Below, in pieces: positions 25,418 to 46,186 of a stretch of 64,000 nucleotides of DNA (positions are counted from its first letter, which is position 1; every line of letters begins with the position of its first letter). Source of the DNA: Odiellus spinosus (taxonomy: Eukaryota; Arthropoda; Arachnida; Opiliones; Phalangiidae); contig CAWUCO010000183.1 of NCBI GenBank assembly GCA_963920705.1, positions 369,507 to 433,506 on the forward strand. Reading direction: 5' to 3'. The notes beneath the pieces are model-generated. The model worked only from the letters and a program-made list of their open reading frames with translations, made no database searches and was not told the origin of the DNA. A program made the translations under genes and the position numbers.

Positions 25418-25755
25418 CTATATTCAGTTAAGTCTTCCATCGTATCATTCATGTAGTAACCCTATAAAAATGATTATAATAAGAGTAGAGATAGAAATTC
25501 TTAATTTTCATGAATTTATTATAAATAGAGGGGAAGGTATAATGAGGATAATTTCTACATCAAAAATAATAAAAATTAAAGCAATTAAGAAAAACTGTAA
25601 AGAAAATGGAATGCGTGTTTTTTGTGAGGGATTAAAGCCACATTCAAAGGGTGAATTTTTTTCACTTATTATGTAATGTATTTTTGCTAAGTTAGAGGAT
25701 AGAATTATTTCAATTAGTCTAATGATAAAAGAAAAGGAAAGGTATGTTATAATTA
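25418..25755 (-). pseudogene. nad3: nad3 (NUMT)
   Basis: The minus strand contains the ND3 signature SPFECGFNP and FFLIALIFIIFDVE, ending LHEWYDGSLNWM and TAG at 25418-25420. Nearly full length in mitochondrial code. Confidence 0.85.
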
Positions 25756-25821
25756 TTATTTATTTTATTAAAAACTTTTTAGTTGGAAGCTAAATGTACT
25801 TTTTATTTTATACTAAATAAA
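25756..25821 (-). tRNA. trnG: Mitochondrial tRNA-Gly (NUMT)
   Basis: Between nad3 and cox3 as expected. Acceptor TTATTTA/TAAATAA, anticodon stem TTTAG/CTAAA with loop CTTCCAA (TCC). Confidence 0.7.
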
Positions 25822-26592
25822 TTATCCTCCTCATCAGTAAATTAATGAATATAATAGTAGTCATACTACATCAACGAAATGTCAGTATCATGCTGCGGCT
25901 TCAAATCCAAAGTGGTGGGTTCTAGAAAAGTGTATTTTATTTAGTCGGATTAGTGTAATTATTAAAAATGTAGTTCCTACAATTACATGTAGCCCGTGAA
26001 ATCCTGTTGCAACAAAAAAAGTTGCTCCATAAATTGAATCAGCAATAGAGAAGGGTGCTTCAATATATTCTTATGCTTGCAGTAATGTAAAATAGCCACC
26101 CAAAATGATTGTTATTATTAGTGATTTTTTAGCTTGTTTAAGGCTTCTATTTAAAATTCTATGATGGGCTCAGGTAATTGAAATTCCTGAAGAAATTAAA
26201 ATTGTTGTATTTAGTAAAGGAATTTGTATTGGATTAAAAGGTTCAATTCCTTTAGGGGGTCATATTATTCCAATTTCAATATAAGGGGAGAGGCTTCTAT
26301 GTAAAAATGCTCAAAAAAATGAAATAAAGAAAATACTTCCGAAACAATAAATAAAATTATACCCCATTTCAGCCCTATTATAACTTTTTGTGTATGATGT
26401 CCTTGTAGTGAGCTTCTCGAGAGATATCTCGTCATCATTGGTATCTTGTGATGATTAAAATTGTAAATCTAATTATTCTTAAAAATGGGGATTTAATATG
26501 AATTCATCTAGTTGTTCCTGATGTTAAAAATAAGGCTCCTAAGGCTGCTGTTAATGGTCAGGGTCTTTGGTCAACAATATGAAATGGAAGCT
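25822..26592 (-). pseudogene. cox3: cox3, nearly complete, left arm (NUMT)
   Basis: From PFHIVDQ at the N-terminus (26590) through LQGHHTQKV, AEMGMMWPPKGIEPFNP-like text and [18 protein letters not shown] to TAA at 25822-25824. A few substitutions and at least one disruption (near 26070). The palindrome centre lies just beyond its 5' end. Confidence 0.85.
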
Positions 26593-26899
26593 ACACTACA
26601 AGGACATCATACACAAAAAGTTATAATAGGGCTAAAATGGGGTATAATTTTATTTATTGTTTCGGAAGTATTTTCTTTATTTCATTTTTTTGAGCATTTT
26701 TACATAGAAGCCTCTCCCCTAATATTGAAATTGGAATAATATGACCCCCTAAAGGAATTGAACCTTTTAATCCAATACAAATTCCTTTACTAAATACAAC
26801 AATTTTAATTTCTTCAGGAATTTCAATTACCTAAGCCCATCATAGAATTTTAAATAGAAGCCTTAAACAAGCTAAAAAATCACTAATAATAACAATCAT
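26593..26899 (+). pseudogene. cox3: cox3 fragment, right arm (NUMT)
   Basis: Inverted copy of about 26100-26411 (LQGHHTQKV, KWG.ILFIVSE, PPKGIEPFNP). It stops at about 26899, where the sequence jumps to tRNA-Phe/nad5, so roughly 1.8 kb (cox3 end, G, nad3, A-R-N-S-E) was deleted from this arm. Confidence 0.85.
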
Positions 26900-26947
26900 T
26901 TTCTACCTTGATTGCTTCAAAATCATATTATATTTTAACTATATAAT

Positions 26948-28574
26948 TTAAAAAATTAAAATTAATATAAATAAAAATAAAATTAAAAGTATTTGAAAAG
27001 TCAATAAATTATACTGCATATTTTGAAAAAATTTCAAATTAAATAAAAATTTATATATACCCTCACCAATTAAAATCTCTCCTCAACCTATATCCCTTCA
27101 TACATTTTAAAACCTACCCCCTTATAAATATTACAAAAACTAAATGAGCTAATATAAATATCATATTCTAATAAAATATAAATACAAAAAATTTAAATTA
27201 AAAACTTTTAAAAATTTATAAAAAACTAAAGTTTCTAATAATAATCAAAAAATTAAACATAAACCTATAATTATAAGTATCCTAAAAATGCTAGGTAAAA
27301 TAATTAAGTGAGCATAGTCAAATAATAACCAATTTATAAATCCCCCAAAAAAACCCCACATAATACTAATATAATAATAAAAAAATTTATATATGAATCC
27401 TCACAATAATTAAAATAACTAACCCCATTAAAACTTATCATTAAAAGATTATAGACTAAACGAAAACTATAAATAACTGTACAAAAAACACCAATAAAAA
27501 ATAATAAAAAATAAAATTTTTTTTATCCATTATTAAAAAAATTTCAATAACCAAATCCTTAGAATAAAATCCACAAGTAAAAGGGAACCCTACTAAACTT
27601 AAGAAACTTAACAATATCCCATAACCTAATACAGGAGAAAAATTAAGAACACCCCCCAAAATACGAATATCTTGCAACCCCCCTATTGAATGAATTAAAG
27701 AACCAGCACATAAAAACAAAAGAGCCTTAAAAATAGCATGAGTTAATATGTGAAAATAGGCTACTTCTCATAAACCAATAGATAAACTAAATATTATAAG
27801 AGCTAATTGACTTAAAGTTGTAAGAGCAATAACTTTTTTAAATCTATTTCTAAACAAGCTTCTATCCCTGACAATAGTAAAGTTAATAAAGAAATGATCA
27901 ATAAACATTGTGAAAAAAAACACCTGCAGTTACTAACGTAGAAGAATGAACTAATGAAGACACAGGAGTAGGAGCAGCTATAGCTGCAGGAAGTCAAGCT
28001 GAAAAAGGAATTTGAGCTCTTTTAGTTATAGCAGCAAAAAAAAATACACATCAATAATCAAATAAACAAATAACTAAAATTTAACTTTTCTAAAAAAATA
28101 TAATTTCATGAACCTAAATTAACTAAAGCAACGATACCTAATAAAATACCAACATCCCCTAAAAGATTTCTTAATACAGTTAATATCCCTGCGTTAAAAG
28201 AACGAATATTTTGATAATAAATAACTAAAGCATAAGAAATTAAACCTAAACCATCTCACCCCAATAGTAAGCTTATTAAATTAGGACTTAAAACTAATAA
28301 ACCTATAGATAAAATAAATAACAAAACTAGGCTAGCAAAACGAACCTTATTTATATCACTTTTATATAAGAATTACTATAAATAAAAACTAAACCAGAAA
28401 TTAATAATACTACAGAAAAAAAGCTACACCTAGTCAATCTAATAATAAAAGAAAACCTCCACTTCTTATGCTAGTAAAAAGTTCATATTCATACAAATAA
28501 ACTTTATTTAATAATAATAAATACAAAGCAAAAAAAAATTATTAGAAAACTTGCAAGTATCAAAAAATTGACAT
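26948..28574 (-). pseudogene. nad5: nad5, right copy (NUMT)
   Basis: Near full length, ATG at 28574 next to tRNA-His, TAA near 26948. The overlap with the left copy (to about 28114) shows scattered substitutions and indels, so the duplication is not brand new or carries sequencing errors. Confidence 0.85.
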
Positions 28575-28579
28575 TATTT

Positions 28580-28637
28580 GGGGTAGTACATAACTACAAC
28601 TTTAATTCCACAAACTAAAATTTATTTTAAACTACCC
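28580..28637 (-). tRNA. trnH: Mitochondrial tRNA-His (NUMT)
   Basis: Between nad5 and nad4. Acceptor GGGTAGT/ACTACCC, anticodon loop TTGTGGA (GTG). The T arm is very short, as usual in arthropod mitochondria. Confidence 0.7.
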
Positions 28638-28639
28638 TA

Positions 28640-29968
28640 ATTTTTTAAAACATTAAGTTAACATTTAATATAAGTATTAGTAAAGGGTAAACATGCCCCC
28701 ATAAAATAATATACTTTTTTAAATCTAGGGAAGAAAAGCTAGAAAAAAGCCAAAATTTACCATGCTGGCTAATTGAGTATATATACAAAGAAAAACCTGC
28801 AACTAAAAAAAATATGAAACCTAAAGTGATTATATATCACAAACTTACCCCTACTATCCCAAATGAAAGAAATAATACACCTAGTAAATTTAGGAGAGGA
28901 GGTGCCGCTATATTTCTAATACTAAAAATAAATCATAATAAAGAAAGACTAGGTAAAACTAATATTAACCCTCGAATTATTAATAAACTTCGGGTATGTA
29001 TACGCTCATAAACTATGTTTACAATTCTAAATAACCCTGAAGATGTAAAACCATGGGCTAATATAATTAATAAAGAACCTATATAACCATAAATTGTTAA
29101 ACTTAATAAACCCCCTAAAAATATACTTATATGTCCTACAGAAGAATAAGCGACTAATCCTTTCAAATCACTCTGTGATAAACATACTACTCTTATTAAT
29201 AAACCACCCCCAAGAAAAAAAGATAAAATTAATCCTCCATACAAAACTAAAAATCCTAAAAATAAAGAGATTAAACGGATCATCCCATACCCCCCTATTT
29301 TTAATATTACACCTGCTAAAATAATAGACCCAAAAACAGGAGCCTCTACATGATCTTTCGGTAACCACAAATGAACTAAATATCCAGGAAGCTTAATTAA
29401 AAAAGCTAAATTAATAAAAAAAAATAACCAGAAAATTCATATGAAAATAAATAAAAGTAAAAAAATTTAAAGATCCTCTATCCTTACTAATTATTAATAA
29501 ACCAACTAAAAGAGGTAAAGAACCAAATATAGTATAAAAAAGTATATATAACCCGGCTCGTTATTTTTCTGGTTGATATCCATAACCCACAATTATTATA
29601 AGAAGAGGAATTAAAGAAGCCTCAAAAGAAAAATAAAATAATATAGTGTTATAAGTTAAAAAAGTTAATAATAATATTAGTATCAAAAAATAACACAAAA
29701 AAGTAAATATAATAAAATTATAACCCTCCTTATTTAAATTTCAGCTAGCTAATAAACCTAAATAAATAATTCATAATGTTAAATGAACTAAAAGAAAATT
29801 TAAAGAGTCACAACTAAAAATTAAAGAAATATTAGAAATAGTACCCTCTAAAGGAAAATAAAAACTTCATAAAAGTAAAGAGATTCTTAATAAGCCTAAT
29901 AAATTTAAAAAATTCAAAAAAGGAGTAAGGAGAATCAAAGAAAAATTATATAGTAAAAAGGCTAACAT
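28640..29968 (-). pseudogene. nad4: nad4 (NUMT)
   Basis: ND4 text throughout the minus strand: WLPKDHVEAPV.GSM.LAG, ILKIGGYGM, MVAYSSVGHM-like and FYFSFEASLIP. Frameshifts occur near 29450-29470. The first codons overlap nad4L by seven bases as in mitochondria. Confidence 0.85.
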
Positions 29969-30247
29969 CGTAATAAATTTAATAAACTAAATAAATCTGC
30001 CCCATACCCTTTAACTAAAGAAACTAATAATCCTAAACCTAATCTTCCCTCACATACCACTACAAATAAATATAACATTATTAATAAAAATTATTTAAAC
30101 CTCCCCCATTCTAATAGATAAAGAAAAATAAATTGAAAGCATTAAAAATTCTAATCTTAAAACTATTACTAATAAATGATAACGACTCAAAATACAAATT
30201 AACCCTCCAATAAATAAAGAAAAAATATAAAAATTTAAAATTATCAT
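29962..30247 (-). pseudogene. nad4L: nad4L (NUMT)
   Basis: The minus strand starts at ATG 30247 and reads FYIFSLFIGGLICILSRYHL and LSLEFLMLSIYFSLS; a frameshift near 30090 is followed by CSGMWGK-type text and TAG at 29962-29964. Confidence 0.8.
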
Positions 30248-30250
30248 TAA

Positions 30251-30311
30251 GTTTTAATAGTTTAAAAAAACATTTGTTTTGTAAACTAAATATGAAATTT
30301 TCTTAAAACTT
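30251..30311 (+). tRNA. trnT: Mitochondrial tRNA-Thr (NUMT)
   Basis: GTTTTAA/TTAAAAC acceptor, anticodon loop around TTTTGTAA (TGT). Correct position between nad4L and tRNA-Pro. Confidence 0.75.
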
Positions 30312-30315
30312 AAAT

Positions 30316-30380
30316 TAAGAGAACTATACACAAAGTTACTTTAATCTCCAAAATTAATATTATTTTTTAACTATATCTTA
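30316..30380 (-). tRNA. trnP: Mitochondrial tRNA-Pro (NUMT)
   Basis: Minus-strand anticodon loop TTTTGGA (TGG), located between tRNA-Thr and nad6 on the opposite strand, as in insects. Acceptor pairing approximate. Confidence 0.6.
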
Positions 30381-30385
30381 TTTAA

Positions 30386-30820
30386 ATTAGACTACTAATT
30401 ATCAATACTTTATTAAGATTAAGAGCTTATACCACCCACCCTCTAGTAATTATTTGTACCAGAATATTAGCCTTTAACACTTTTGTTTTTACAAAAATTT
30501 CACTATTTAGTTACATAATTATATTAGTTATATTAGGAGTGCTAATTATTCTATTTATTTATATAGCCTCATTAGCCCCTAACGAACCTATTTATACAAA
30601 AAAAAATATACAAATTCTTTCTATAAGAGTTTTAATAACAATAGTGGTACTTATATTTAACTACAAATTACCCTATCAAATTAATAAATCCATTGAAGTT
30701 AACTTATTAATAAATAATATTATATTAATTATTATTGCAGCTAGCTATCTTTTTATAACACTTATTGCGGTAGTAACAATTACAAAAATTTCTAGAGGCC
30801 CCTTACGATCAAACTTTTAA
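30386..30820 (+). pseudogene. nad6: nad6 (NUMT), open in mitochondrial code
   Basis: 144 codons from an ATT start to TAA, with ND6-like hydrophobic text (HPLVIICTSMLAFNTFVF, MLGVLIILFIYMASLAPNE). The TAA overlaps the cytb ATG by one base. This frame appears intact. Confidence 0.85.
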
Positions 30821-31029
30821 TGAAAATACCTTTACGAAAAACTCATCCTATTATTAAAATTATTAATTCATCTTTAATTGATCTACCAGCCCCATCTAAT
30901 ATTTCATACTGATGAAATTTTGGGTCTTTACTTATTTTATGCTTAATAATCCAAATTATTACAGGAATTTTCTTAGCTATACACTATACAGCAGATATCA
31001 ATCTAGCTTTTAATTCTTTATCACATATT
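30820..31029 (+). pseudogene. cytb: cytb 5' part, interrupted by a transposon
   Basis: ATG at 30820; [38 protein letters not shown] typical of cytochrome b. It breaks at about 31029 where a 1.95-kb element is inserted, and resumes at 32979. Confidence 0.9.
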
Positions 31030-32978
31030 GGGGGCAATTCTCTAACTTTTCAGGATTTTATCGTAAACGATAAGTGATAACTTTACCGGGCGGTACCTTA
31101 TCGATCGTTCGCTAAATCCGTATTCTCTAACTCGCGCGCTCGATTTACGATAAGGATTAGTACGATAACTCCAAAAACGGTAAAAACCGTACTTTCGATA
31201 AAAAAAAAAACTTTTTTCGTTAGGCTTAGCTCTAAAATGAAAACGTTTTACAAAGTTTTATTTCATTTTCATTCGGATTTATAGGATCCTTGGAATTCAT
31301 TTAAATAAGAAAAAAATTAAAGAAACAGAAAAGAAAGCTTATTTTATTTAAAGCCATTCTAAACTATTTAATAATTATTGAACTAGCTATGAAACTTTGA
31401 TTTAAAACGAGGCTAAAGATGAAGGATTTTCAAGTATGAATGTGTAACCACTAAACTCTTATTTAGCCTAATCCACACCGACAATATTGAAGTATTTAAT
31501 ATAAAAATTGATTCTTTAGTTTTAACTTGAAATAAGGATGTATTTACAGACTAGAAATGCGACGGAGAGAGTGCTTAGAAAGGAACAGTAGAAATAGTTG
31601 TAATGCCATATGTAAGAGGTTGAAAAAGCAAGTGATAATATGGATTTCATTCAAATTGTTTTTATTCAAACTGATTCGCATTAATGTTACACAAAGTACA
31701 TTTTATTCACTGATACAAGAATTATTAAACCGGCTTAGGTACAGATTTTACAATTAACACGGAGAAAAAATTTAAATGAGGAAATATTTTTAAAAAACAA
31801 GTTTACGGATAAATTCAAAATACCTAGCTAGAAGTTTTAATTGCCCTTGCAAAATTATTAATGTTTGCGTGTGGCACGGGTATTTTGTGACGAAACATGG
31901 CAATTCTTGATAAATGTCCAACTTCTTCAAAATCGGTTGCGGTATGAGTAATATTTTCGAAATTTAGCTTTCCAAAAGTCATGAAAAATATTTTAGATCT
32001 ATACACCGAGACTTCCGTAGTTTTATCCCATTTATTTATACGGTATTCTTGGCTTTTTAAATTTTAAGCGTAGAAACAGTTTGGTTGCGGGATCTCTTTC
32101 ACATTCCTAGCAAATTTACTGTACTAGTAGAATTTCCTACGGTATCTGGTATCCAACTTTTAAATCGTGATAAAATTCAGCAGAAAATCAACGTACGCAA
32201 CTCTGAAAAATGATTAGTGTGTTACTTAGCTACGTAGAAATCAAAAAGGTTCAACGAAAAAAGGTTGAGCGACGTACTGAGTTTTGAAATCACAAATAGA
32301 AATAATGAAATAATACTTTAAGAAAATGAAACTCAGGAAATCGTTCTACCATTTACATATGAATAGAGAGAATATGAAATATCAAATTGGTACAGTTTAA
32401 CTGATGCAAGGCTTACCTTAATAGTATCGAGGTCTTTCGAGGATCAGACTTCCTAGGACTATATGCTCTGGCTTGACGAACAGATTATTGAATTAGATAC
32501 TCGGGAGAGTTTAAAACCTTTATCATGATCTCGTAAAACATTCTCTCCGCGAAATATTCGTCGATTTTATTTATTTCGAGCCTTCGGGTTCGGCGCAAAT
32601 TCGTTCGTTCGCTTGGCTGCCATTTTAGCGGAAGCCTGACGAAGGTCGCCACCTAGCGTTTTTTATTTGAAATAAGATTGAAGCCGCGAAATTCAAACGC
32701 GTATTTTTACTAGTATTTGTTTGTTGAAGCCTATCAATTCTAAAAATGATCTAAAAACGCTGAATTATAGAAATTATGGATGTTTTTTCTTCGTTCGATA
32801 AGAGTTACCGACAGCAAATACCCTGTTGTTAAGTTATCGGGTGGTTATCGTATCTCGCGCTCGATAATTTCACGTTTGGAAGTTAGAGAATACCATTTTT
32901 TGATAACTTATCACATTTACGATAAATCCGGAGTTATCGTATGCGCGTGCACGATAAAAAAGTTAGAGAATTGCCCCC
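31030..32978. mobile_element. Non-autonomous DNA transposon in NUMT cytb
   Basis: Ends are inverted repeats GGGGGCAATTCTCTAACTTT (31030-31049) and its complement (32959-32978). Inside both ends are further short palindromic GATAA/TTATC and GTTAGAGAAT motifs, giving complex sub-terminal repeats. No transposase ORF of any size. I could not resolve a clear target duplication. Its presence proves that this cytb lies in the nucleus. Confidence 0.75.
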
Positions 32979-33622
32979 ATAATACGAGATGTAAACTTAG
33001 GTTGAATATTCCGACTAATGGGGCTAGTCTATTTTTTATTTGCATTTATTTACATATTGGACGATTAGTATATTATGGATCTTATAAATCTATAACTGTT
33101 TGGTTAACAGGAGTACTAATTTTATTTATCCTAATAGCAACAGCATTTTTAAGTTATGTTTTACCCTGAGGACAAATATAATTTTGAGGAGCTACTGTCA
33201 TCACAAATTTATTTTCAGCCATTCCATATATTGGAACAAATCTAGTATCTTGACTTTGAGGAGGATTCTCAGTAGATAACCCCACCCTAACACGATTCTT
33301 TACTCTACATTTTTTATTACCTTTTATTTTAACAGCAATAATTTTTATCCATATTGTTTTTCTACACCAAAAGGGATCAAATAATCCCTTAGGTTTAAAA
33401 AGTGAAATTGATAAAATCCTTTTTCATCCTTATTTTACTATTAAAGATATTTTAGGGTATATAATTACATTAACTTTTTTTTTACTAATTATTATAATCT
33501 ACCCAAACATATTAGGAGACCCAGAAAATTTTAATAAAGCAAATAGATTAGTAACCCCTCTTCATATCCAACCAGAATGATCATTTTTATTTGCATATGC
33601 TATTCTACGTTCTATTCCTAAT
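32979..33622 (+). pseudogene. cytb: cytb 3' part, cut by element 2
   Basis: Continues cytochrome b: [21 protein letters not shown]-like, [27 protein letters not shown] and AYAILRSIPN. A small deletion near 33015 shifts the frame. The sequence changes at about 33622 directly into polymerase coding DNA; the last about 270 bases of cytb are absent. Confidence 0.9.
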
Positions 33623-36600
33623 ACGGGACTACCAAGGGTACAATCGAGTACGTTTCTGTAGTCGCTCTGATGAATTGGATAGCACGATTAACCTGGCCTT
33701 TATGAACATAAATGACCTAACAGCCGAAAGAGTTATTCGAGCTATTAGTCAAGTAGCGCAATCGAACCAAAATTTTCATCTTGAGAGTTCCCTAACTTTT
33801 GACGTAGTTCTATTACAATGTGACGTCCCAGTTGGAGCTCTCCAAAAAAGTTTGAATCGTCGAAATATTGTCCCTTTTGATACGTTTATTAAAATCAATC
33901 CCAATTACATTTATCTGGAAAATGATGATCATTTATGTTTCGGCCGAGCTTTGGCTATTGGTATCTTTTTAGCCGACCTCCGGGTCGAGAAAAGAAAGAA
34001 CAAAGTCTTCAAACCGAGCAAAGACCAGACGTATTACTTTAGGGATCTTAAAGATAGTACGAAGGATGTACAGAAACGTGAAGCTCTACTCTTATACCAT
34101 AATGCCAAAATCGAACCAGGGGCCGTTAACTTGAAAAGTATAGAAAAATTCCAACACTTTTTGGTCGACTACCAAATTGTCATTATTCGATTAGAAAATA
34201 TTAATGAATTTTATTTTCGCGGTCCCTGGCGTGAAAAACAAATTTTTATGGTCCTTGTAAACGATTACGTGCATATATTGAAGGATTATCATTGTCTGAA
34301 GGGTGGGTCATCCTATTGTTCCAAATGCTTAAAGATTTTTACACGCTATAGTCGTCTTAAAGAACACGATTGCGAGACGCGTGTGAATTGTAGTAGATGT
34401 CGTATGTTAAACGTTTTTCACGAGGAAATTAACATTCCGTTACAGAGATGTCGCGACTGTGGGCGTTACTTTAGAGGTCCAGATTGCTTCAATTTACATT
34501 TAGCTAACGGCACGTGTAAAAATTTTAAACGATGTGTAAAATGTGGATTAGCATTGAAAGACAATCACGAATGTTCGAGACCCTGTAAAAATTGTCGGAG
34601 AAAACACGAAAAAAACCGTTGTTACGTCATGCCTTTGGATACCAAGTACGAAAAGAGACGTTATTGTTATTTTGACACTGAGACTGTGACCAAAAATAAC
34701 GAACATGTCCCAGTTCTGTTGGTTAGCGCCATGGAAAATGAAGAAGACGGAGAATACACTTACAGTATTTTCCGAGGGTTTGACTGCATTGACCAGTTTA
34801 TGGCGTACCTCTTCCAAACGAAAGATACCTATATTCAACACGCCACGAAACGTATGAAGAAAAAGGTTCCAGTCTTTGAAAACGTAACATTAATCGCTCA
34901 CAATTTTATGGGCTTTGATAGTTTCTTCATTTTAAACGCCTTATTAAAAATGTCCATTACCCCTGATGTCGTCTTTAAAGGTAGCAAGCTGCTGGCCATC
35001 TTTCAGAACCAACAAAAAATGAAATTCTTGGATTCCTTTAATTTTGTGGCTCAACCCTTAAGATCGTTTCCCGCCACGTTTTCATTGGGGGAAAGCAAAA
35101 AAGAATTTTTCCCCTATACTTTTCATACTGAAGACACGTTAGATTACGTCGGGCCTCTCCCTAGCAAAGACTATTTTCAACCTGAATACATGAAAGAAAA
35201 AGATTACGCCGAGTTTAGCCAGTGGTACGAAGAGAAGAAAAAGCAACCAGTCTATAATTTGAGAGAATTGGAGTATTACACAATCATGGATGTCAAGGTG
35301 TTACAACAAGGAATGGATACCTTTCGAAGATTATTCCAGCAAGAAACCGCTTACGACGTTATGAATATGAATGCTTTGACCATTGCCGGGGCTTGTACTA
35401 ACATATTTCTGCACAAGTACCTGGAAGAATTTAGTTTAGGCGTTGTTCCGGCAAACGGATATGGAAAAATGTCAATCAAAGTCAAGCCGCATTAAAATGG
35501 TTGGCTTGGGAAGCTGAGAAACGTAACATCGACATACAAACCACCTTATCGTTGGGGGGTGAAAAGAAAATTGGTCGTTTTCCGGTTGACGGGTATTGCG
35601 CTAATCCTGAAATCATTTTTCAATACGACGGGGATTTTTTTCACGGAGCTGCGAATGGGAAGAAATGCTGAAGACTAACCAGGAGCTAAAAACATTCTGC
35701 AAATCTTTATCTTTTCGCGAGCCAATTGGTCCGAAATCCGCTTTATACGGCGGTCGGACAGAAGGTCTCGTTTTGTATCGAAAGGCTCAACCGGATGAGA
35801 TCTTATTCTACGATATAATGAGTCTTTACCCCTTTGTCTGTAAGTACCGTGACTATCCAAAGTTACACCCGGAAGTAATTAAAAAAAATTTTAATTACGA
35901 AACAAATTTTTATTTTGGATTAATGTCTTGCAAGATTTTGGCACCAAAAAACGCCTATATACCAGCCTTATCTTTTCGAACAAGGGGTAAACTTTTCTTT
36001 GCCTTATGTAAGACATGCGTCGAAAACGATCTTGAGTCTTGCACCCACAGTGACCAAGAAAGGGCTTTCGACGGCTGCTGGACGAGTGTTGAAATACACA
36101 ATGCCGTGGAATTTGGATACGTCATAATGGAAATTTTCGAAGTTCATCACTACGCTGAAAGATACCGCTACGTTAAAGGGGAGGATCCAGGTTTCTTTGG
36201 AGGGTACATCAATACCTTTTTGAAGCTGAAAATTCAAAATTCGGGATGGCCGAGAGAAGTGAAAACGGAAGCCGAAAAATCTGAATATTTGAAGGCGATC
36301 AAGGAGAGGGAAGACATTGATATTAAAGCTGAGGATGTGACGTGCAACACCCCTCTCAGAACTCTTCCCAAGCTAGCGCTCAACTGCAATTGGGGACGTC
36401 ACTGCATGTCCCACGACAAGCCCAAGACGGTCTTTGTCAAAACCTACGAAGCCTACATATCCATTGTCACAGACCCGACTATCGAACTGACCGATATGCG
36501 ACCTTTCAATGACGAAGTTTGTATGTTGTCTTACAAGTTCAAGAAAGATTTTTGTCCGACGTACTACAAAGGCTCGCCAGTGGTTGGTTGCTTCGTTAGC

Positions 36601-37079
36601 TCCTATGGTCGCATTGTCTTGTTTCAAACTTTGCAACAGTTGGGGACCAGGATTTTATATTATGAAACTGACTCGGTTTTTTTGTCCGAAAGAACAATGA
36701 CGAAACAAATTTTCCACCCCTCGGTCAATTTATGGGAGACTGGACCGACGAAGTTCCGGGTACTTATATCACTGAATTTGTGTGTTCAGGACCCAAGTCG
36801 TATAGCTACAAAACAGCCGACGGTAAAAGCGTCACGAAAATGAAAGGCATTTCCCTCAATCGAAAAAATGAAGAAATCATCAATTTTGATTCGATAAAAG
36901 CGGCCTTGGACAAACCAGAAACCACGTACTCGGTGGAGGTCCCCTTTAACGTGGTGCGCAACAAGAGTCAGGCGAAGCTTTTTCTGGGTAATTTAAAGAA
37001 GACTTATGGTGTCACCTTTAATAAAAGAATTATCAAAGATGATTACTCGATAGTGCCCTTTGGATATTCGAACGAATAA
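33623..37079 (+). pseudogene. Protein-primed DNA polymerase B, element 2 (broken)
   Basis: Begins about 86 residues inside the element-1 protein (DYQGYNRVRF), exactly at the junction with cytb. Contains the Cys/His zinc region, exonuclease motifs I (YFDTET), II (HNFMGFDSFF) and III (YTIMDV), a one-base frameshift near 35470, a deletion of about 45 residues after DGDFFHG near 35646 (present in element 1), then motif A (YDIMSLYP, about 35810), a motif-B-like KLALNCNWG (about 36370), motif C (YYETDSV, about 36660) and a frameshift near 36725 before the C-terminal part (TYITEFVCSGPKSYSY to PFGYSNE). Motif C has Glu where polymerases of this family have the first catalytic Asp. Confidence 0.9.
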
Positions 37080-37080: not shown

Positions 37081-37506
37081 ATGTATGGTGAAAGTAAAAG
37101 ATTGGAGACCTTTAACAATATCAATTGGTTGACGGCCTCGAAACATTTGCCACGCCACTCGTATCTAGCTTCGGAACTGGCTGAAGCGGGTTTTTTCTAT
37201 TTGAACGAAGGTTGTAAGACTAGATGTTTCTGTTGTCACAATGAATTTGACTGGAGCGAAAGCAGTAGCGATGAATATCCACTGAACGTACATCAAAGAG
37301 AAGCCCCGTTTTGCGCCTTTTTACTCGATCAGGATAAAACTAATTTGAAAGCGTACGAAGAAGCCCATCAAGAAAAATTGGCCAAGGAAGCTGTGGAAAA
37401 ACTGACCATTTTGATGAAAAACAAACATATTTTGAGGTTTGTGGAAGCATTACGCGAGGTGGTATTAGATGGATTTGGAAAAGAGTATAAAAAAGGTGAC
37501 ATTTGA
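37081..37506 (+). CDS. BIR-domain inhibitor-of-apoptosis-like protein
   Basis: 141 codons, starting one base after the polymerase stop. Residues about 8-82 form one BIR domain: RLETFNNINW, then AEAGFFYLNEG, then zinc ligands CFCC...H-x6-C (RCFCC, VHQREAPFC). The Cys-to-His spacing is 18, two longer than the commonest BIR. No RING follows; the C-terminal 55 residues are helical and charged. BIR proteins of insect viruses block caspases or sequester pro-apoptotic peptides; that role is inferred here. The frame is intact although the polymerase just upstream is broken. Its 3' end overlaps the PPP1R15-like ORF. Confidence 0.85.
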   Translation: MYGESKRLETFNNINWLTASKHLPRHSYLASELAEAGFFYLNEGCKTRCFCCHNEFDWSESSSDEYPLNVHQREAPFCAFLLDQDKTNLKAYEEAHQEKLAKEAVEKLTILMKNKHILRFVEALREVVLDGFGKEYKKGDI

Positions 37507-37663
37507 CGAGATAACGGTTATTTGGTATATCCCTGTCGAGGATCGGACCAATTGGAATTTTGTTAATCATTTCCGTTTTAAAAAGAGAATTAAAGATTTT
37601 GAGCTTAAATTTCAAAAATGTCGTGTCGAATCAAATTTCAAGCTCCAATGCAGCTGTTGGTGA
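37469..37663 (+). CDS. PPP1R15-like PP1-docking small protein, element 2
   Basis: 64 codons overlapping the BIR gene end (38 bases) and the ATPase start (46 bases). Residues 9-13 are KVTF within KKVTFDEITV, an RVxF PP1-docking motif followed by a beta strand; then IWYIPVEDR, NWNF and FRFKKRI. The W-x7-R-F-x2-R-I ending is the hallmark order of the PPP1R15/GADD34 core seen in several large DNA viruses, which targets PP1 to phosphorylated eIF2alpha. The element-3 ORF 22674-22868 shares IP-x-EDR-x-N and the place upstream of the ATPase. Everything beyond motif order is inference; a chance overlapping ORF is possible but unlikely to be conserved twice. Confidence 0.6.
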   Translation: MDLEKSIKKVTFDEITVIWYIPVEDRTNWNFVNHFRFKKRIKDFELKFQKCRVESNFKLQCSCW

Positions 37664-38271
37664 GTGGTCCAACCATGTGTGGTAAAACCACCTGGATATT
37701 TAACCTTTTAAAAAACGCCGAGACTTTAATTGAACCTCCACCCAATAGGATCGTGTACTGTTATAAAGAGTACCAACCAAAATTTAAAGACATGCAGAAA
37801 GAAATAAAAAATTTAGAGTTTATTGAGGGATTGCCCCCAGAAGATCGCAATTTTTGGGATGAAAATTTGCATAATTTTTTAATTATTGATGACTTGGCCT
37901 TTACCTGTTATAATAACGCGCACATTGCTAATATCTATTGTGTTTCCTCGCACCATAAAAATGTGTCAGTGGCTTTGTTAACTCAAAATCTATTTGGGCA
38001 AGGAAAAGAAAGCCGAACAATTAGCCATAATTCCTCGTATATCATATGTTTCAAAAATCCTCGTGATGGAAGTCAAATAAACTACTTGAGTAGACAAATA
38101 TTTCCCCATAACAAAAATCTCGTGGCCAAAGCTTTTCATCTAGTGACGGCTGCTAATCCATTTTCTTGCTTGTGTATAGATTTTAAACAAAATATGCCTG
38201 ACGAGTTACGTTTAAGAAGTAACCTATTCCCTCACGAAGGTACTATGATCATTGTTTGCAATGACAAATAA
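37618..38271 (+). CDS. Genome-packaging ATPase (FtsK/HerA/A32-like), element 2
   Basis: Intact, 217 codons. Walker A GPTMCGKT (residues 17-24), Walker B LIIDDL (88-93), sensor-like LLTQNLFGQGK. Homologous along its length to 21864-22499. In Polintons and adintoviruses it drives DNA into the capsid. It overlaps the preceding small ORF by 46 bases. Confidence 0.9.
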   Translation: MSCRIKFQAPMQLLVSGPTMCGKTTWIFNLLKNAETLIEPPPNRIVYCYKEYQPKFKDMQKEIKNLEFIEGLPPEDRNFWDENLHNFLIIDDLAFTCYNNAHIANIYCVSSHHKNVSVALLTQNLFGQGKESRTISHNSSYIICFKNPRDGSQINYLSRQIFPHNKNLVAKAFHLVTAANPFSCLCIDFKQNMPDELRLRSNLFPHEGTMIIVCNDK

Positions 38272-39830: not shown

Positions 39831-40310
39831 TTATTCAAGACAAGATTGATTTTTATGATTCCATAAATGTATAAGCATATTTAACATAATTATAGCGTCG
39901 TTGTACGTTTTGTCATTCTTGTTGTACATATCTTGAAGGATATCTTCGAAAGAAATTCCAGAGCACAGGTTTGTCAGAACAAAAATGACGTGTCCGCCGC
40001 AGGAGAAAGATTTGGTTGGCTGCAGTTGTGTAAGATTGTGTTTCCAGTTTGAGGCGTATCTCGACAAATCTAATCCGTAAAAATCCGGTTCTTTCCCGTA
40101 AGAACAAAAGAAAATGCCGTCATCATTTTTATCCACGTAGACGCCCATCCAATGCAATCCACTTTCAGTCGAAGGTTGCGAGTTGATGACGAAACAAAAG
40201 GGCGTAAAATCTGGTTTCTTGGGTAGAATATCTTGAGGGTAAACCCCGATAAAAAATGGTCTAGTACGGGGATCGCATTGCAAAAAGCCTTGTAAATCTT
40301 CGGTATTCAT
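39831..40310 (-). CDS. Adenain-like cysteine protease, element 2
   Basis: Intact, 159 codons. GVYPQDILP (22-30), CFVIN (39-43), catalytic His in LHWMGVY (His53), then IFFCSYG, then LQPTKSFSCGGHVIFVL with probable oxyanion Gln97 and catalytic Cys104. This is the fold signature of the adenovirus maturation protease, also found in Polintons. The acidic third member of the triad, usually Asp or Glu in a F-[DE]-S-[FY]-G context, is Cys69 here, which could impair activity. The ATG overlaps the integrase stop by four bases (ATGA). Confidence 0.8.
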   Translation of the reverse strand: MNTEDLQGFLQCDPRTRPFFIGVYPQDILPKKPDFTPFCFVINSQPSTESGLHWMGVYVDKNDDGIFFCSYGKEPDFYGLDLSRYASNWKHNLTQLQPTKSFSCGGHVIFVLTNLCSGISFEDILQDMYNKNDKTYNDAIIMLNMLIHLWNHKNQSCLE

Positions 40311-40860
40311 AATTCAATTTTTTGAAGCTCGGGCTCGTAAAAGCTACCCTTAATTATTTCATCATTTTCGTCTTGTATGACGTAAGCGGGCGGATCTCGA
40401 AATAAGACTTTTTTAATAACAAAAATTTCCGTTGTCCAGTACCCAGTATAACCTTTAGCAAAAACCCCTTTATCAGCCGCTATTCTAACCAAATCACCGA
40501 CTCGTAACTTTGGGACTTTTCTTTTTACGCTTCTATTCATGTATAATCTTTTCCAGACAAGATGTTCGTTATTTATAGTAACATTTTTGGGTGCCATCCC
40601 AATGGTTGAATGGACAGTTTGATTGTAACCATCAACCAATTTTTGTAAATGTTTCGAGTAATTATAATCCTGGTTCTTGGTCATAAGACGAAACATTCGG
40701 CTTTTTAAAGTTCTATTCCAACGCTCTATAATCCCACATTTTATATTACCATAACTAGCGTACCAGAGGATCCCTTTACGTTTTAAATAAGCTTGAACTT
40801 CTTTATTAATAAATGTTCTTTCGGCATGATAACGCGAGATCCGTCAGCGATATGATTCAA
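40307..40860 (-). pseudogene. Retrovirus-like integrase C-terminal part, element 2
   Basis: The open frame 40696-40307 carries the core end and SH3-like domain (YNQTVHSTIGMAP, LRVGDLVRIA, YTGYWTTEIFVI, DPPAYVIQD). The same gene extends upstream to about 40835 with TFINKEVQAYLKRKGI and IIERWNRTLKSRM (catalytic Glu). The N-terminal zinc domain and first two catalytic Asp blocks are missing. No chromodomain-like tail, unlike element 3. Confidence 0.8.
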
Positions 40861-40870
40861 AAAGTTCTTT

Positions 40871-41008
40871 TTAAACTTCTTTTAAGGCTTTTTTCATCTC
40901 TTGGAAATTCCAACAGGATCGAACAAATCCGACTTCTCTAAGATTGTTTCGAACTGTCACCACCAGGTTTAGTTCCTTTCGTTGAGAGAAGAAAACGTAC
41001 TCGTCCAT
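40871..41008 (-). CDS. 45-codon ORF between integrase and capsid genes
   Basis: ATG at 41008 just after the capsid stop at 41013; the product begins MDEYVFFSQRKE. It sits where the integrase N-terminus would be and may be a remnant or a separate small gene. Nothing recognisable. Confidence 0.2.
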   Translation of the reverse strand: MDEYVFFSQRKELNLVVTVRNNLREVGFVRSCWNFQEMKKALKEV

Positions 41009-41012
41009 CCTC

Positions 41013-42353
41013 TTACTCTAACTTGTAAAGAATGGTTCGATCTTTCGTTATCAACATTTGGTTCTCAAACTCGCCGTAGACGATAACTGTGACTGCCGAG
41101 CTTAACGGGTTTTTAAATTTCATCGTTAAGCGTAAACTACCGTGTTTTTCCAAAGAAAAATGTTCGCCACTAGCTCCCTCTTCAGCTGTTAAATCCAACG
41201 CCAGTAAACAATTGCCCTGGGGGTATTCCTCGTACGAGATATCATTACCTTTATTTTTACCGTAAAAATCTAAAGCCGTGAACAGGGATTGGTATTCGCG
41301 ACAATAGCGTTTTTCAGCAAAATTTGGTTGAAAAGGTTGATCGGGATAATTTTTATTTCCAACCGTAACGGCTAAATACGTCAAATCCAAGTGCTCGAAA
41401 TTAAAAGGATTTTCAGTTAAATCTCCGTTGAAGGCTGATGTCTTTACGATGGCAATTCTAATTCTATTTGGGATTCTACCCAAGAAGACATTTTCTTTCG
41501 TCGTGTCTGTGTTACCTCTTTCTATCCCAAAGTACTTTGCCACAGTCTGATTAATCGGGTAGACGCAGGGTGTTTTTTCCAAAACCATGGCGTGGGCTAA
41601 CATTAAGTCTGGGTTTAACTTAATTTTCCTAACGTAGAGCGATGCATCGCTGATGACGAATCTATATTGAGTGGCGGCTGGGGGCAGCGCGGGCGGGGCT
41701 GGAAGTGCTTCTCGCGATATAATGGGAAACGACATTCCTGATCTAATAAATTTAAATTTTACATCTACATTGTTTAAGACGAATTTATTCATTTTACAAA
41801 TATCCAGATGGAGTTTCCCTATCATTTCACATACTTGAGATGGATCAACGCGCTCTTTTCTCAGTTTCATTCCTTGATTAGACGCGTCAAAAATATCCTC
41901 GGGTTTTATCTTGGTATCTTTGTAAAACATTTCCAAAGCTAATTGCGTCTCTTTGGCATCTTTCCCGTAATTTAACAATGTTTCGAAATAAGCGATATAC
42001 GGAGCTAAATTATTAACGGTTTGTACTAGCGTATCATTTAACATTGCTTCTATTTGAGAAAATAAAGCCCATAAGAGTAAATTCACAGGTCCAACTGTGT
42101 CTACCGCCGCCGTCATATCTTCCCAAGCATTATTCGTCGTGTTTTTTTTTAATAATTTAACGTTAAGCTTTAATCTGGTTTTTGATAAATCGACATAGTG
42201 TTCCGGAGTACCGGGGACGAAAAATTCGATTGGTCCTCCATCCGTAATTGAATTGACGGGTTTTAATTCAATATCATTACTAGCCAAAATATTATAATTA
42301 CTAACAGGTTTGACGAACAAGTCGGCTTCAGACATCATACCTTCAGACCCCAT
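41013..42353 (-). CDS. Major capsid protein (F54H12.2-like), element 2, intact
   Basis: 446 codons without interruption. Family landmarks: GPIEFFVPGTPEHYVDLSKT, VGPVNLLLWALFSQIEAM, an AYFETLLNYG block, SLYVRKIKLNPDLMLAHA, FNFEHLDLTYLAVTVGN, and a C-terminal LRLTMKFKNPLS...VIVYGEFEN. Proteins of this family lie beside the minor capsid and penton-like genes in invertebrate Polintons and are presumed to form the capsid lattice. A TATAAATA 52-59 bases upstream fits a late promoter. The decayed element-3 copy is at 14107-15241. Confidence 0.85.
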   Translation of the reverse strand: MGSEGMMSEADLFVKPVSNYNILASNDIELKPVNSITDGGPIEFFVPGTPEHYVDLSKTRLKLNVKLLKKNTTNNAWEDMTAAVDTVGPVNLLLWALFSQIEAMLNDTLVQTVNNLAPYIAYFETLLNYGKDAKETQLALEMFYKDTKIKPEDIFDASNQGMKLRKERVDPSQVCEMIGKLHLDICKMNKFVLNNVDVKFKFIRSGMSFPIISREALPAPPALPPAATQYRFVISDASLYVRKIKLNPDLMLAHAMVLEKTPCVYPINQTVAKYFGIERGNTDTTKENVFLGRIPNRIRIAIVKTSAFNGDLTENPFNFEHLDLTYLAVTVGNKNYPDQPFQPNFAEKRYCREYQSLFTALDFYGKNKGNDISYEEYPQGNCLLALDLTAEEGASGEHFSLEKHGSLRLTMKFKNPLSSAVTVIVYGEFENQMLITKDRTILYKLE

Positions 42354-42404
42354 CTTGTTGCGTTAGATAACTACAACTAAAGCCGATGCCGGCAAGATCC
42401 GGCT

Positions 42405-42412
42405 ATTTATAT
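42405..42412 (-). promoter_or_regulatory. Late-type TATA box of the major capsid gene
   Basis: Minus strand GATATAAATAGCC, 52-59 bases before the ATG at 42353 and just beyond the stop of the minor capsid gene. Confidence 0.5.
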
Positions 42413-42414
42413 CC

Positions 42415-42795
42415 CTAGGATAAAAAATCGGTTTTCTTTCTTCGTTTTACTTTACGACCCTTTAGACTTTTTCTTTTACGTTTACCAGTGCCGTATTGCG
42501 AATTGAGAACTTTGTCACCAGCTGTGTGTAATAGATTAGACCCAGCAATTTTAATATTCCTTTTTAAAGCTGATTTTGGATCTTGCCCCGCTGAAATATC
42601 ACCGATCCAGCGACTTCCAACACCAATTGCTTCCCGACCTAAGGCCTTGGCCGCTGGCTTTATAATGGGGGTAATGAATCGAACTAGACTCTTAAAAATT
42701 GAACCTAACCCGTTACCGCGTTGAAAAACGGGACCTCGGAAGCCTCCTCCTCCAGCTTGCTGCAGGTAATAGTAATAATACCTATTTCGCGACAT
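42415..42795 (-). CDS. Minor capsid/core protein (pVI/pX-like), element 2
   Basis: 127-codon ORF whose second Met (42795, MSRNRYYYYYL) is an equally good start. Tyr-rich N-terminus, QQAGGGGFRGPVFQRGNGLG, then LVRFITPIIKPAAKALG and a Lys/Arg-rich tail (GKRKRKSLKGRKVKRRKK). Homologous to 17899-18297. Probably a DNA- or membrane-interacting internal capsid component (inferred). Confidence 0.75.
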   Translation of the reverse strand: MSRNRYYYYYLQQAGGGGFRGPVFQRGNGLGSIFKSLVRFITPIIKPAAKALGREAIGVGSRWIGDISAGQDPKSALKRNIKIAGSNLLHTAGDKVLNSQYGTGKRKRKSLKGRKVKRRKKTDFLS

Positions 42796-42804
42796 CATTT
42801 TTAT

Positions 42805-44073
42805 TTACCTTCGTCTAAAATGTAATGTGGTCACTGTTTTCCCGAGTTTGAAAGGAATTTTACTGCCCGAATCAGTGGCAAATTCTATATCAACCACGTT
42901 AAAATTCGGTGTTCTGACGGGGTAATAATTAATCGGGTTAAACGTTAACTCGTAGGGGGTATTATACTTGTTGTTCTCTGGTCTGGGTATTGTACGTAAT
43001 AGACCTCCCCAAGTGTCACCTATAACCTGAGGGTATATGAGACTGGTATAATCGAATAAACTCTGGACACCTCTATTTATATCAGCGATATGTTCACCAT
43101 GGCTCTTGTGCGTTAAGCCTTTCTCAATTTGTTTGGTATCAAAACCCAGCATAAGACCTAAACCAGGATTGGATTTGGGAAAGCGAATGGTAAAACTGTC
43201 TCTCAAATTTTTTTGTTGATCCGTGAGAAGATAATCGGGTTTTGCTTCATCAATTAACCCTAGACCACAAAGTATCGTTACCGTCCCATTGTTATTTTGC
43301 TCAAAATCAAAATAAGGCCTCATTCTCGGGGGTAAACACTCTCTCATTCCTTTTAACACCTTCTCTATAGTTTCGTACGTACCGTGTGGTAGTTGATAAG
43401 TTTTAGTTTGATATAAAAGATTTTCGACTCGTTCGTTACCCGTTAATTTTATGGTCTTGTCTCTTTTGACCATCTGCCGAACGTAAAAAGGGGGATATTT
43501 GGAGGTGTCGAGTTTGATCCTGTTCTGGTCTAAAGCTCGTGTTCCAACAATGGTTGTCCCCGTTATCCATTTTTCACAATCCCGCGCTTCTAAACCTAAT
43601 AATTCGCAATACATTCTGGGAAATTTAACGAAGGTTTCACCATTGGGATCTTTAAATTCAATAAGAAAACGTTCCTGACCGTTGACGATCCCGATTTGAA
43701 ATTCTAACTTGTCTTTTACTTGTTGTTGAGTAATAGACGCCTGCATCTGATTAATAATTTTATGATAAATACTTTCATTCGTATTTTTAATTATTGTACT
43801 TTTATCGTTTACGGTTCCCTGACCCGTTTCGTATTTTAAATCTAAATCAACCATTCTAACGACAAAAGTATCGAAGAAGTCGGTAATATTATCCCATTTC
43901 GAAGGCATACTAATGCCCGATAAACCGACTTCCCAATGTCCTTCAGATAAATCAAATGACGTTTGTAATTGCGTCGTGTAACTGGTTTTTGTGTTTTTCG
44001 GGTATTGAGTCATGGAGGCGTTACTCGGGAGAGTCAAGTAGAACGAATCGTAGATGGGAGCGAGCATCGTCAA
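42805..44073 (-). CDS. Penton-like capsid protein, element 2, intact
   Basis: 422 codons, homologous throughout to 25-1287: PSNASMTQYPKNTKTSY, HWEVGLSGISMPSKWDNI, QLPHGTYETIEKVL, NPGLGLMLGF, ADINRGVQSL, and KLGKTVTTLHFRRR at the end. Start at ATG 44073 (MTMLAPIYD). Capsid vertex or minor capsid role inferred from position and the compact homologue in element 3. A TATA-like GATAAATAA lies 46-55 bases upstream. Confidence 0.8.
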   Translation of the reverse strand: MTMLAPIYDSFYLTLPSNASMTQYPKNTKTSYTTQLQTSFDLSEGHWEVGLSGISMPSKWDNITDFFDTFVVRMVDLDLKYETGQGTVNDKSTIIKNTNESIYHKIINQMQASITQQQVKDKLEFQIGIVNGQERFLIEFKDPNGETFVKFPRMYCELLGLEARDCEKWITGTTIVGTRALDQNRIKLDTSKYPPFYVRQMVKRDKTIKLTGNERVENLLYQTKTYQLPHGTYETIEKVLKGMRECLPPRMRPYFDFEQNNNGTVTILCGLGLIDEAKPDYLLTDQQKNLRDSFTIRFPKSNPGLGLMLGFDTKQIEKGLTHKSHGEHIADINRGVQSLFDYTSLIYPQVIGDTWGGLLRTIPRPENNKYNTPYELTFNPINYYPVRTPNFNVVDIEFATDSGSKIPFKLGKTVTTLHFRRR

Positions 44074-44974: not shown

Positions 44975-46186
44975 AATCATGATATCCTTTTCAGAAAACT
45001 AAATCATTATGGACTTGGGGGTGATATTTTGAAATTTCTTGAGGTGTTTCTGAAAGGAAGATCAAATATTATTAAATGTAATGGGGTTGTAACTAAACAG
45101 GCTTACCTTACTAACTGCGGAGTCCCTCAGGGCTCTGCTCTAGGTCCGCTTTTGTTCACAATTTTTGTCAATGACCTATCGGACTGTATAACTAACGCTA
45201 ATACATCTCAGTTCGCGGATGATTCGAAACTCTATCCGGTAATCAAAAACTTAGAAGATTGCGAAAAATTACAAATTGATATAAACAATATAGAGAGGTG
45301 GAGCGACGAAAATTTATTACCGTTGAACGTAGCTAAGACTAAATTAGTTACATTTACTAGAAAAACGCGCAAAATTACCTACCAATACAAATTGAACAAT
45401 ATAATGATTGATAGGGAACCTTTTCGAGAAGATTTGGGTATAATATTTGACTCTAGGCTACTATTCTGTGAACAAATGTCAAATGTAACGTCTCGTTGTC
45501 GAAAAACTTTAGGAATGTCTTTGAAAATTTGTAAAAAAAATTGGTTCTGCGTATGCCTTTAAACTCTTATATATTTCCTTGGTTAGGAGTATAATAGAAT
45601 ATGGCTTATTGATATATGGGGGCTGTTCTCAATCCAAACTTAACATAATTGAAAAGGTACAAAAAAGTTCATTGAACTATATTATTTTAATTTTAAATGT
45701 GAAGGTATATATTTTTATAATAGTGTACTTAAACGTATACATGTCCAGAGCTTCGAGTGTAGAAAAATGTCAATTGAAATATTATTCTTAAAAAAGATAT
45801 TAAACAATCAAGTTGATTGTCCATTTTTATTATCAAAATTAGGTATATTTGTTCCTTTGAAAAATACGCGGCATTCGAACTATTTCTATCAGAAACAGCC
45901 TTCTAATCTTAATCCAATTTCTAGACTTCAATCTACTTATAATAGAATTTCCACAAAAATCGACTTAGGGGATAATTCTATTAATTTTATAAAGAATTAT
46001 TTTAGACACTAGTATTTTATTGTTGACGAATATGTTTTATTATAACATTTGATTTAAATTGTTAATTAATCTGTTCCTGGGAATATATACCGCTTAATTT
46101 AATTTATTAATTTAACGATGTGAACCACTGTAAAAAGCCTCGTCTGTTGGTGTTGTGGCCACAATAAAATTTGATTTGATTTGATA
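44975..46186 (+). mobile_element. 5'-truncated LINE (jockey/CR1-type)
   Basis: Begins inside a reverse transcriptase domain (HDILFRKLNHYGLGG) and ends with a tail of TTTGAT repeats (AAATTTGATTTGATTTGAT) directly against mitochondrial rrnL. A typical 5'-truncated insertion. Confidence 0.85.
44977..46012 (+). pseudogene. Reverse transcriptase fragment of LINE
   Basis: Contains GVPQGSALGPLLFTIFVNDL and the catalytic FADDSK block, then a YKLNNIMIDR-like thumb, with frameshifts near 45555 and 45780 before the C-terminal part that ends at 46012. Inactive. Confidence 0.85.

What the first reader, a model, noticed from the sequence alone, without database searches (positions are those of the whole stretch)
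37469..37663. PPP1R15/GADD34-like mini-protein in a Polinton-like element
The 64-codon ORF has KVTF (an RVxF PP1-docking motif) followed by a beta-strand-like stretch, IP-x-EDR, a Trp and then RFKKRI, the same order as the PP1-recruiting core of PPP1R15 and of the herpesvirus and African swine fever virus proteins that reverse eIF2alpha phosphorylation. If real, it is a virus-like transposon gene that keeps translation running under stress. I do not know of this family being reported in Polintons.
Basis: partly seen in the sequence, partly recalled or inferred. Interest (0 to 1): 0.9.

Follow-up and report, generated by a model that had tools for sequence, protein, structure and literature searches.

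The report
Stress-response phosphatase mimic in Polinton transposons
A tiny gene in virus-like jumping DNA of an animal genome resembles the part of a host protein that switches protein synthesis back on after stress, which suggests that these elements, like some known viruses, try to keep the cell making proteins.

Summary
Supported. The 64-codon ORF (37469-37663 +) is a selected gene and a divergent homologue of the PPP1R15 (GADD34/CReP) core. Alone it is weak: no Pfam hit; 11.4 bits to a cellular-R15 HMM, reached by 1 of 10000 shuffles. The host genome decides it: at least 159 matches and further divergent families, one of them met by a Pfam PP1c_bdg scan. A profile of 14 minis from six families ranks PPP1R15B first in the PDB (E 3e-7; R15A did not appear). 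Its invariant residues include the RVxF V and F, the EDR arginine and F-x2-R-I. The core is under purifying selection (dN/dS 0.07-0.20 in 12 of 15 family-B pairs, 3 saturated). In families A, B, C and E it usually follows a BIR (IAP) gene, overlapping it or, in 2 of 11 E loci, fused to it. Best reading: a Polinton module that recruits PP1, and probably actin, to dephosphorylate eIF2alpha. Viral R15 mimics are known; in Polintons, with BIR pairing and a shortened hinge, I found none reported. No biochemistry was done.

The parts
37469..37663 (+). mini-PPP1R15 ORF, 64 aa
37493..37504 (+). RVxF PP1-docking motif KVTF (residues 9-12), inside the overlap with the BIR ORF
   Evidence: V and F invariant in 14 minis; overlap
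37538..37546 (+). EDR (residues 24-26); the Arg matches R658 of PPP1R15B, which binds the Arg site of PP1
   Evidence: invariant in 14 minis; role from passages of PMC4394352
37553..37555 (+). Trp 29, probable counterpart of W662 (PPP1R15B); Tyr in families C-F
   Evidence: role
37574..37591 (+). RFKKRI (residues 36-41); F37, R40, I41 match the actin-contact Phe, Arg and the conserved Ile
   Evidence: F, R, I invariant in 14 minis; roles
37081..37506 (+). BIR (IAP-type) ORF, 141 aa, 3' end overlapping the mini-R15 ORF by 38 nt
   Evidence: Pfam BIR E 1.9e-11
37618..38271 (+). Polinton packaging ATPase, 217 aa
   Evidence: 266 homologues at E<=0.001, alignment
33597..37079 (+). protein-primed type DNA polymerase B, broken into pieces in different frames (33597-35495, 35665-36843, 36732-37079)
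   Evidence: DNA_pol_B_2 in the first two pieces, searched apart; ORFs
39831..44067 (-). minus-strand module: protease-like ORF 39831-40310, integrase C-terminal fragment 40307-40696, ORFs 41013-42353, 42415-42798 and 42805-44067 that match counterparts beside integrase and protease in another Polinton
   Evidence: tblastn to L043 and L044; L043 integrase rve plus Chromo, protease Peptidase_C5

Best explanation
The ORF encodes a stripped-down PPP1R15 (GADD34/CReP) core carried by Polintons. Its N-terminal half would lie along protein phosphatase 1 through the RVxF motif, the hydrophobic stretch after it and the EDR arginine; the helix that starts around RFKKRI would hold G-actin; the complex would dephosphorylate eIF2alpha and keep translation on while the element replicates. 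Encoded next to, overlapping with or fused to a BIR protein, it would be part of an anti-stress, anti-apoptosis accessory module. Shown here: homology of the family, conservation of the contact residues, purifying selection, spread over several families in one genome, BIR pairing. Inferred: binding to PP1 and actin, eIF2alpha as substrate, benefit to the element, and translation from its own ATG near the BIR stop (reinitiation or leaky scanning).
For: Best of 1041 window frames on a cellular-R15 HMM, 1 of 10000 shuffles as high. A PF10488 scan of the genome, made without the ORF, met the host gene and 13 sub-cut-off loci, 12 of them with a BIR hit just upstream. Profile of families C-F without A, B or cellular rows: ORF64 44.4 bits, host R15 23.8, P0121 (R15B type) 19.6, each 0 of 10000 shuffles. 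hhalign 95.9; PDB first hit PPP1R15B, third DP71L. Invariant V, F, EDR, F, R, I in 14 minis match residues shown by others to matter. dN/dS 0.07-0.20 in 12 of 15 B pairs. BIR and R15 core in one frame in L073 and L081.
Against: No binding or activity data. ORF64 has no Pfam hit. Families C and D stay under the PF10488 cut-off, and the A, B, E and F representatives do not reach E 10; family F scores only 2.7-4.0 bits on the cellular HMM. Human PPP1R15A did not appear in the PDB search at E<=10, while unrelated NDUFB7 did at 0.005. Minis have three residues fewer between the Arg and the helix Phe, the conserved Trp is Tyr in families C-F, and the R612 actin segment is not recognisable. Some copies lose a key residue: position 40 in L023, L024 and L027, the EDR arginine in L053 and L083.
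Confidence: 0.78

Rival explanations
1. An R15-derived PP1 regulator with a changed substrate: it docks on PP1 but, with a shorter hinge and without the full actin segment, steers PP1 to another protein, for example a viral or BIR-linked target.
For: RVxF and Arg motif kept, while the hinge is three residues shorter, Trp is Tyr in families C-F and the R612 segment is not seen. BIR fusion or pairing could give another location.
Against: F-x2-R-I, the actin-facing part that generic PP1 regulators lack by the account of PMC4394352 (passages), is invariant in the 14 minis.
Confidence: 0.13
2. Convergence: an unrelated short protein that came by RVxF and a basic helix without descent from PPP1R15.
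For: The core is only about 33 residues; ORF64 alone is weak; family F barely scores on the cellular HMM.
Against: Profile-profile match over 49 columns; PF10488 is the best Pfam family for C and D; PPP1R15B first in the whole PDB; a C-F profile finds the host R15 exon with 0 of 10000 shuffles as high.
Confidence: 0.07
3. Not a gene: a chance open frame across the BIR-ATPase junction.
For: It overlaps BIR and ATPase at its ends; single-sequence searches found nothing.
Against: The tested codons lie outside both neighbours and show strong purifying selection, which the other two frames do not; the core recurs away from the ATPase and fused to BIR.
Confidence: 0.01

Closest known systems
Cellular PPP1R15A (GADD34) / PPP1R15B (CReP), Pfam PF10488
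   Same: RVxF, hydrophobic stretch, Arg, F-x2-R-I in the same order; conserved stretch of about 70 residues
   Different: Minis are about 50-105 aa with no long N-terminal region; 11 instead of 14 residues from the Arg to the helix Phe; Trp is Tyr in families C-F; no R612 segment
African swine fever virus DP71L
   Same: Small virus-encoded R15 core (PDB chain of 71 aa); third PDB match of the mini profile, E 7.2e-6; recruits PP1 to eIF2alpha (PMC5346070, abstract and passages)
   Different: Has the 14-residue spacing in the printed alignment; different virus group
Herpesvirus ICP34.5
   Same: Virus-encoded R15 core, according to PMC4394352 and PMC8500838 (passages)
   Different: Different virus group; sequence not compared here
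Avipoxvirus R15-like protein (Shearwaterpox SWPV1-205, P0131)
   Same: 100-aa protein with the core (Pfam PF10488; 93.2 bits on the cellular HMM)
   Different: 14-residue spacing and PWE block as in cellular R15; no BIR context was looked at
Granulovirus R15 (coGV-gp036)
   Same: An insect virus named as carrying an R15 core in a figure legend of PMC4394352
   Different: Baculovirus; sequence not compared here

Membership tests
PPP1R15 (PF10488) | RVxF PP1-docking motif at the start of the core | tested here: met
   V10 and F12 invariant in 14 minis of six families
PPP1R15 (PF10488) | Arg for the Arg site of PP1 after a hydrophobic stretch | tested here: met
   EDR invariant in the 14; two fetched copies outside that set (L053, L083) have Gln
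PPP1R15 (PF10488) | conserved Trp after the Arg (W582/W662) within a PWE block | tested here: inconclusive
   Trp in families A and B, Tyr in C-F; PWE block absent
PPP1R15 (PF10488) | F-x2-R-I helix that contacts G-actin | tested here: met
   F37, R40, I41 invariant in 14 minis; position 40 changed in L023, L024, L027
PPP1R15 (PF10488) | 14 residues from the Arg to the helix Phe | tested here: not met
   11 in 14 of 14 minis, 14 in 11 of 11 cellular rows
PPP1R15 (PF10488) | C-terminal R612 / amphipathic actin-cleft segment | tested here: inconclusive
   No conserved counterpart after the helix in A5, where the tails do not align
PPP1R15 (PF10488) | score over the curated PF10488 cut-off (26.1 bits) | tested here: not met
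   Best mini 22.0 bits, E 1.4e-4 (L034); ORF64 no hit
PPP1R15 (PF10488) | binds PP1 and G-actin and dephosphorylates eIF2alpha | not testable with these tools
   needs biochemistry or complex modelling
Polinton/Maverick | PolB, packaging ATPase, rve integrase, adenovirus-type protease, capsid genes | tested here: met
   PolB (broken) and ATPase in the window; integrase fragment, protease-like ORF and capsid-module ORFs match an element with rve plus Chromo and Peptidase_C5. The capsid ORFs have no Pfam match, so their identity as capsid genes is by position and inference

The most novel reading that the evidence does not exclude
Polintons of this animal carry their own old branch of PPP1R15, marked by a shortened hinge and usually coupled to a BIR protein as overlapping or fused genes: a compact two-function module that blocks both stress-induced translation arrest and cell death. 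It would be evidence that these 'transposons' live as viruses that face an antiviral integrated stress response.
Probability: 0.5. Interest if true: 0.85.

Novelty: new variant of a known kind. Interest (0 to 1): 0.74.

Why it matters
R15 mimics are described in herpesviruses, African swine fever virus and a granulovirus, and an avipox one came up here. Polintons are known mainly by their replication and capsid genes. A conserved eIF2alpha-phosphatase mimic would say that Polintons need to defeat the integrated stress response, which a quiet transposon would not need, and would give a direct assay of their viral life. The small size and the missing hinge residues are also a natural test of which parts of the R15 core are needed.

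Tried and rejected
Single-sequence searches with ORF64 gave nothing useful (Pfam, PDB, proteins, viral contigs). NDUFB7 (E 0.39, 0.0052 with the profile) was taken as chance: it covers the helix part without RVxF; this was not examined further. Viral-contig scans with the ATPase and with a family-C mini found no relative; phage records gave only two weak matches, E 0.4. The AlphaFold monomer (pLDDT 62) is of low confidence and was not fold-searched. A chance frame is rejected. A recent capture from this host's own gene is disfavoured: the host exon L029 lacks the three-residue deletion. Searches stopped with script errors after part of their output and were redone. Rows used: cellular HMM 13 (12 of the 15 proteins plus the host exon; viral P0131 and fragments P0134, P0135 left out); alignment A6 11 of those 13 (P0126, P0132 left out); selection 7 of the 28 family-A/B loci and 4 of the 13 family-C loci.

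Full report
WHAT IS THERE. The ORF at 37469-37663 (+) encodes 64 residues; its ATG directly follows a stop. It is in frame 2 and bridges the gap between a BIR/IAP ORF (37081-37506) and the packaging ATPase (37618-38271), both in frame 1. The surroundings are a Polinton: DNA_pol_B_2 in two separate pieces, an ATPase with 266 homologues at E<=0.001, and on the minus strand a protease-like ORF, an integrase fragment and capsid-module ORFs that match counterparts in a second Polinton (L043: rve plus Chromo integrase, Peptidase_C5). The window's copy is decayed: PolB is split over frames and the integrase is a fragment.

SINGLE-SEQUENCE EVIDENCE IS THIN. ORF64 matches no Pfam model at E<=10, and no protein of a 5.8-billion set shared enough words with it. 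Against the human PPP1R15B core (letters from PDB 4v0u) it has 16 identities in 41 columns, pairwise BLASTP E 5e-4, and a local score reached by 1 of 20000 shuffles, the best of 1421 window frames; against PPP1R15A the score is reached by 33 of 20000 shuffles and ties with another frame. An HMM of 13 cellular R15 sequences gives 11.4 bits, reached by 1 of 10000 shuffles, first of 1041 frames with the next at 6.3.

THE HOST GENOME SETTLES IT. The window is C183:369507-433506 of a 443-Mb, unnamed assembly. ORF64 has 159 matches at E<=10 (150 of 302 candidates scored, so a lower bound); 61 rows of the table, the window's own included, cover residues 1-64 without an internal stop; some look like copies within duplicated stretches, so they are not all independent. 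Twenty more divergent loci that I chose (L009-L028, 'family B', 41-53% identical) all have BIR and ATPase hits around them on the same strand, as do the 8 family-A loci. A scan of the genome with Pfam PF10488 gave 14 matches: the host PPP1R15 exon (L029, E 2.6e-8) and 13 others at E 0.07-0.66, below the curated cut-off. Those 13 are a third family ('C'); 12 of 13 have a BIR hit just upstream. A search with a C mini reached more. Of the 40 further loci examined, 21 are C, 11 E, 4 D and 4 F; BIR hits accompany 21 of 21 C, 10 of 11 E, 0 of 4 D and 0 of 4 F. The same search hit ORF64 back in its own frame (E 0.015, 40% identity) with about 30 other family-A copies.

PROFILES. Fourteen minis of families A-F (alignment A5) have invariant M1, V10, F12, E24, D25, R26, F37, R40 and I41. 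Outside those 14, position 40 is changed in L023, L024 and L027 and the EDR arginine in L053 and L083. A5 against 11 cellular R15 sequences: hhalign probability 95.9, E 5.2e-9 for this one comparison. A5 against the PDB: PPP1R15B first (E 3.2e-7, 6.6e-7), DP71L 7.2e-6, NDUFB7 0.0052; PPP1R15A chains did not appear at E<=10. Pfam: L034 PF10488 E 1.4e-4, L041 4.7e-4, L066 0.21, each the best family of that protein; A, B, E and F representatives none. A profile of families C-F only, with no A, B or cellular row, gives ORF64 44.4 bits, the host exon 23.8 and P0121 (R15B type) 19.6, each 0 of 10000 shuffles; P0133 11.3, 1 of 10000; R15A-type P0130 5.5, not shuffled. Weak point: family F scores 2.7-4.0 bits on the cellular HMM.

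CONTACT RESIDUES. Passages of PMC4394352: PPP1R15B V641 and F643 engage PP1, R658 sits in the Arg site, and changes at R658, W662, F672 and I676 weaken activation by actin; the mouse PPP1R15A counterparts of the last two changes still worked in cells. Passages of PMC8500838: human PPP1R15A F592 enters an actin pocket, R595 pairs with actin D334, R612 also contacts actin, and the enzyme pivots on a hinge between the PP1-facing and actin-facing parts of R15. ORF64 has V10, F12, R26, W29, F37, R40 and I41 at the matching places. No R612 segment is recognisable. From the Arg to the helix Phe there are 11 residues in 14 of 14 minis and 14 in 11 of 11 cellular rows, also 14 in the avipox protein and in the printed DP71L alignment. 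The Polinton minis therefore share a three-residue deletion at the hinge that this host's own gene does not have: a distinct branch, not a recent copy of it.

SELECTION. In 32 codons after the BIR stop and before the ATPase start, A against six B sequences: pN 0.24-0.30, pS 0.83-0.91. Of 15 B pairs, 12 give dN/dS 0.07-0.20 and 3 are saturated. C pairs that differ give 0.18 and 0.35. The two other frames show no comparable deficit of pN. This stretch overlaps neither neighbour, so the selection is on the mini-protein. Seven of 28 A/B loci and 4 of 13 C loci were used.

GENE ARRANGEMENT. Of 41 loci (L001-L028, L030-L042) the core was located by pattern in 40; in 36 of 40 the longest neighbouring frame, with the C-terminal residues of the BIR protein, ends 8 nt after (18, TGA) or 7 nt before (18, TAA) the V codon, always in the same relative frame; in the other 4 another frame was longest. 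The mini's first ATG lies 9-27 nt upstream of V in all 40. In families A and C the RVxF codons lie within the overlap, in the mini's frame, which argues for translation from its own ATG (inference). In L073 and L081 (2 of 11 family-E loci) one frame runs from the BIR Met through the R15 core; in L074, L077 and L080 the frame runs from the stretch after the BIR domain into the core. So overlapping and fused forms both occur naturally. Family C sits in elements whose ATPase, where found (L044, L045), is 34% identical to the window's, and not beside it. One F locus (L087) lies in an element whose ATPase is 81% identical to that of L044; in L088 the F mini precedes the ATPase. No Polinton gene was recognised around family D in L086 and L090, so its carrier is unknown.

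HOW IT PROBABLY WORKS. Most likely the mini-protein wraps around PP1, recruits G-actin through its helix and targets phospho-eIF2alpha, as reported for cellular R15; DP71L is reported to recruit PP1 to eIF2alpha (PMC5346070, abstract, passages). A BIR partner would block apoptosis (inference from the domain). PP1 and actin binding and the substrate are inferred. The AlphaFold monomer (pLDDT 62) shows a loose N-half and a helix 29-63, compatible but weak.

WHAT IS KNOWN. PMC4394352 names a granulovirus R15 (coGV-gp036) and a herpesvirus one in a figure legend; one search returned an avipox one. Library searches: PPP1R15 with Polinton 0 papers; adintovirus with inhibitor of apoptosis 0; Polinton with BIR 2, of which I looked at passages of one, where BIR is in the reference list, and did not open the other; granulovirus with PPP1R15 1; Maverick, Polinton and inhibitor of apoptosis together in 2 of the 25 listed of 141; of the 15 listed of 123 papers of a mixed search none held PPP1R15 or GADD34. 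In PMC11071296, PMC8363768 and PMC8097293 the word phosphatase does not occur (passages only). The first description of adintoviruses (recalled) is not held, and most subscription papers are missing, so absence from print is not proven.

VERDICT. A real gene, a divergent PPP1R15 core in Polintons, very probably an eIF2alpha-phosphatase recruiter. New variant of a known kind. Whether it exists outside this one genome was not testable here.

Noticed in passing
window 23880-33600: AT-rich mitochondrial-like DNA in a nuclear contig (numt), with an inverted partial copy of one stretch by eye and a cytochrome b split in two (residues read with code 5); the Polinton begins about where the cytochrome b reading ends.
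   Followed up: partly
window 31029-32979: Insert of about 1.9 kb inside the cytochrome b copy, bounded by perfect 22-nt inverted repeats.
   Followed up: no
window 23300-23860: Several tandem tRNA-Val-like units by eye; only one (23498-23570, minus) passes ARAGORN and Rfam.
   Followed up: partly
window about 45000-45600: Reverse-transcriptase-like stretch (non-LTR type by eye) just right of the Polinton; no database search was made.
   Followed up: no
L073, L081: Family-E loci with BIR and R15 core in a single continuous frame.
   Followed up: partly
L087 against L044: Elements with 81% identical ATPases carry different accessory genes (F mini, no BIR hit, against BIR plus C mini), which suggests exchange of accessory modules between Polintons.
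   Followed up: no
L066-L068, L083, L086, L090: Family-D minis without a BIR hit or recognised Polinton gene nearby; carrier unknown.
   Followed up: partly
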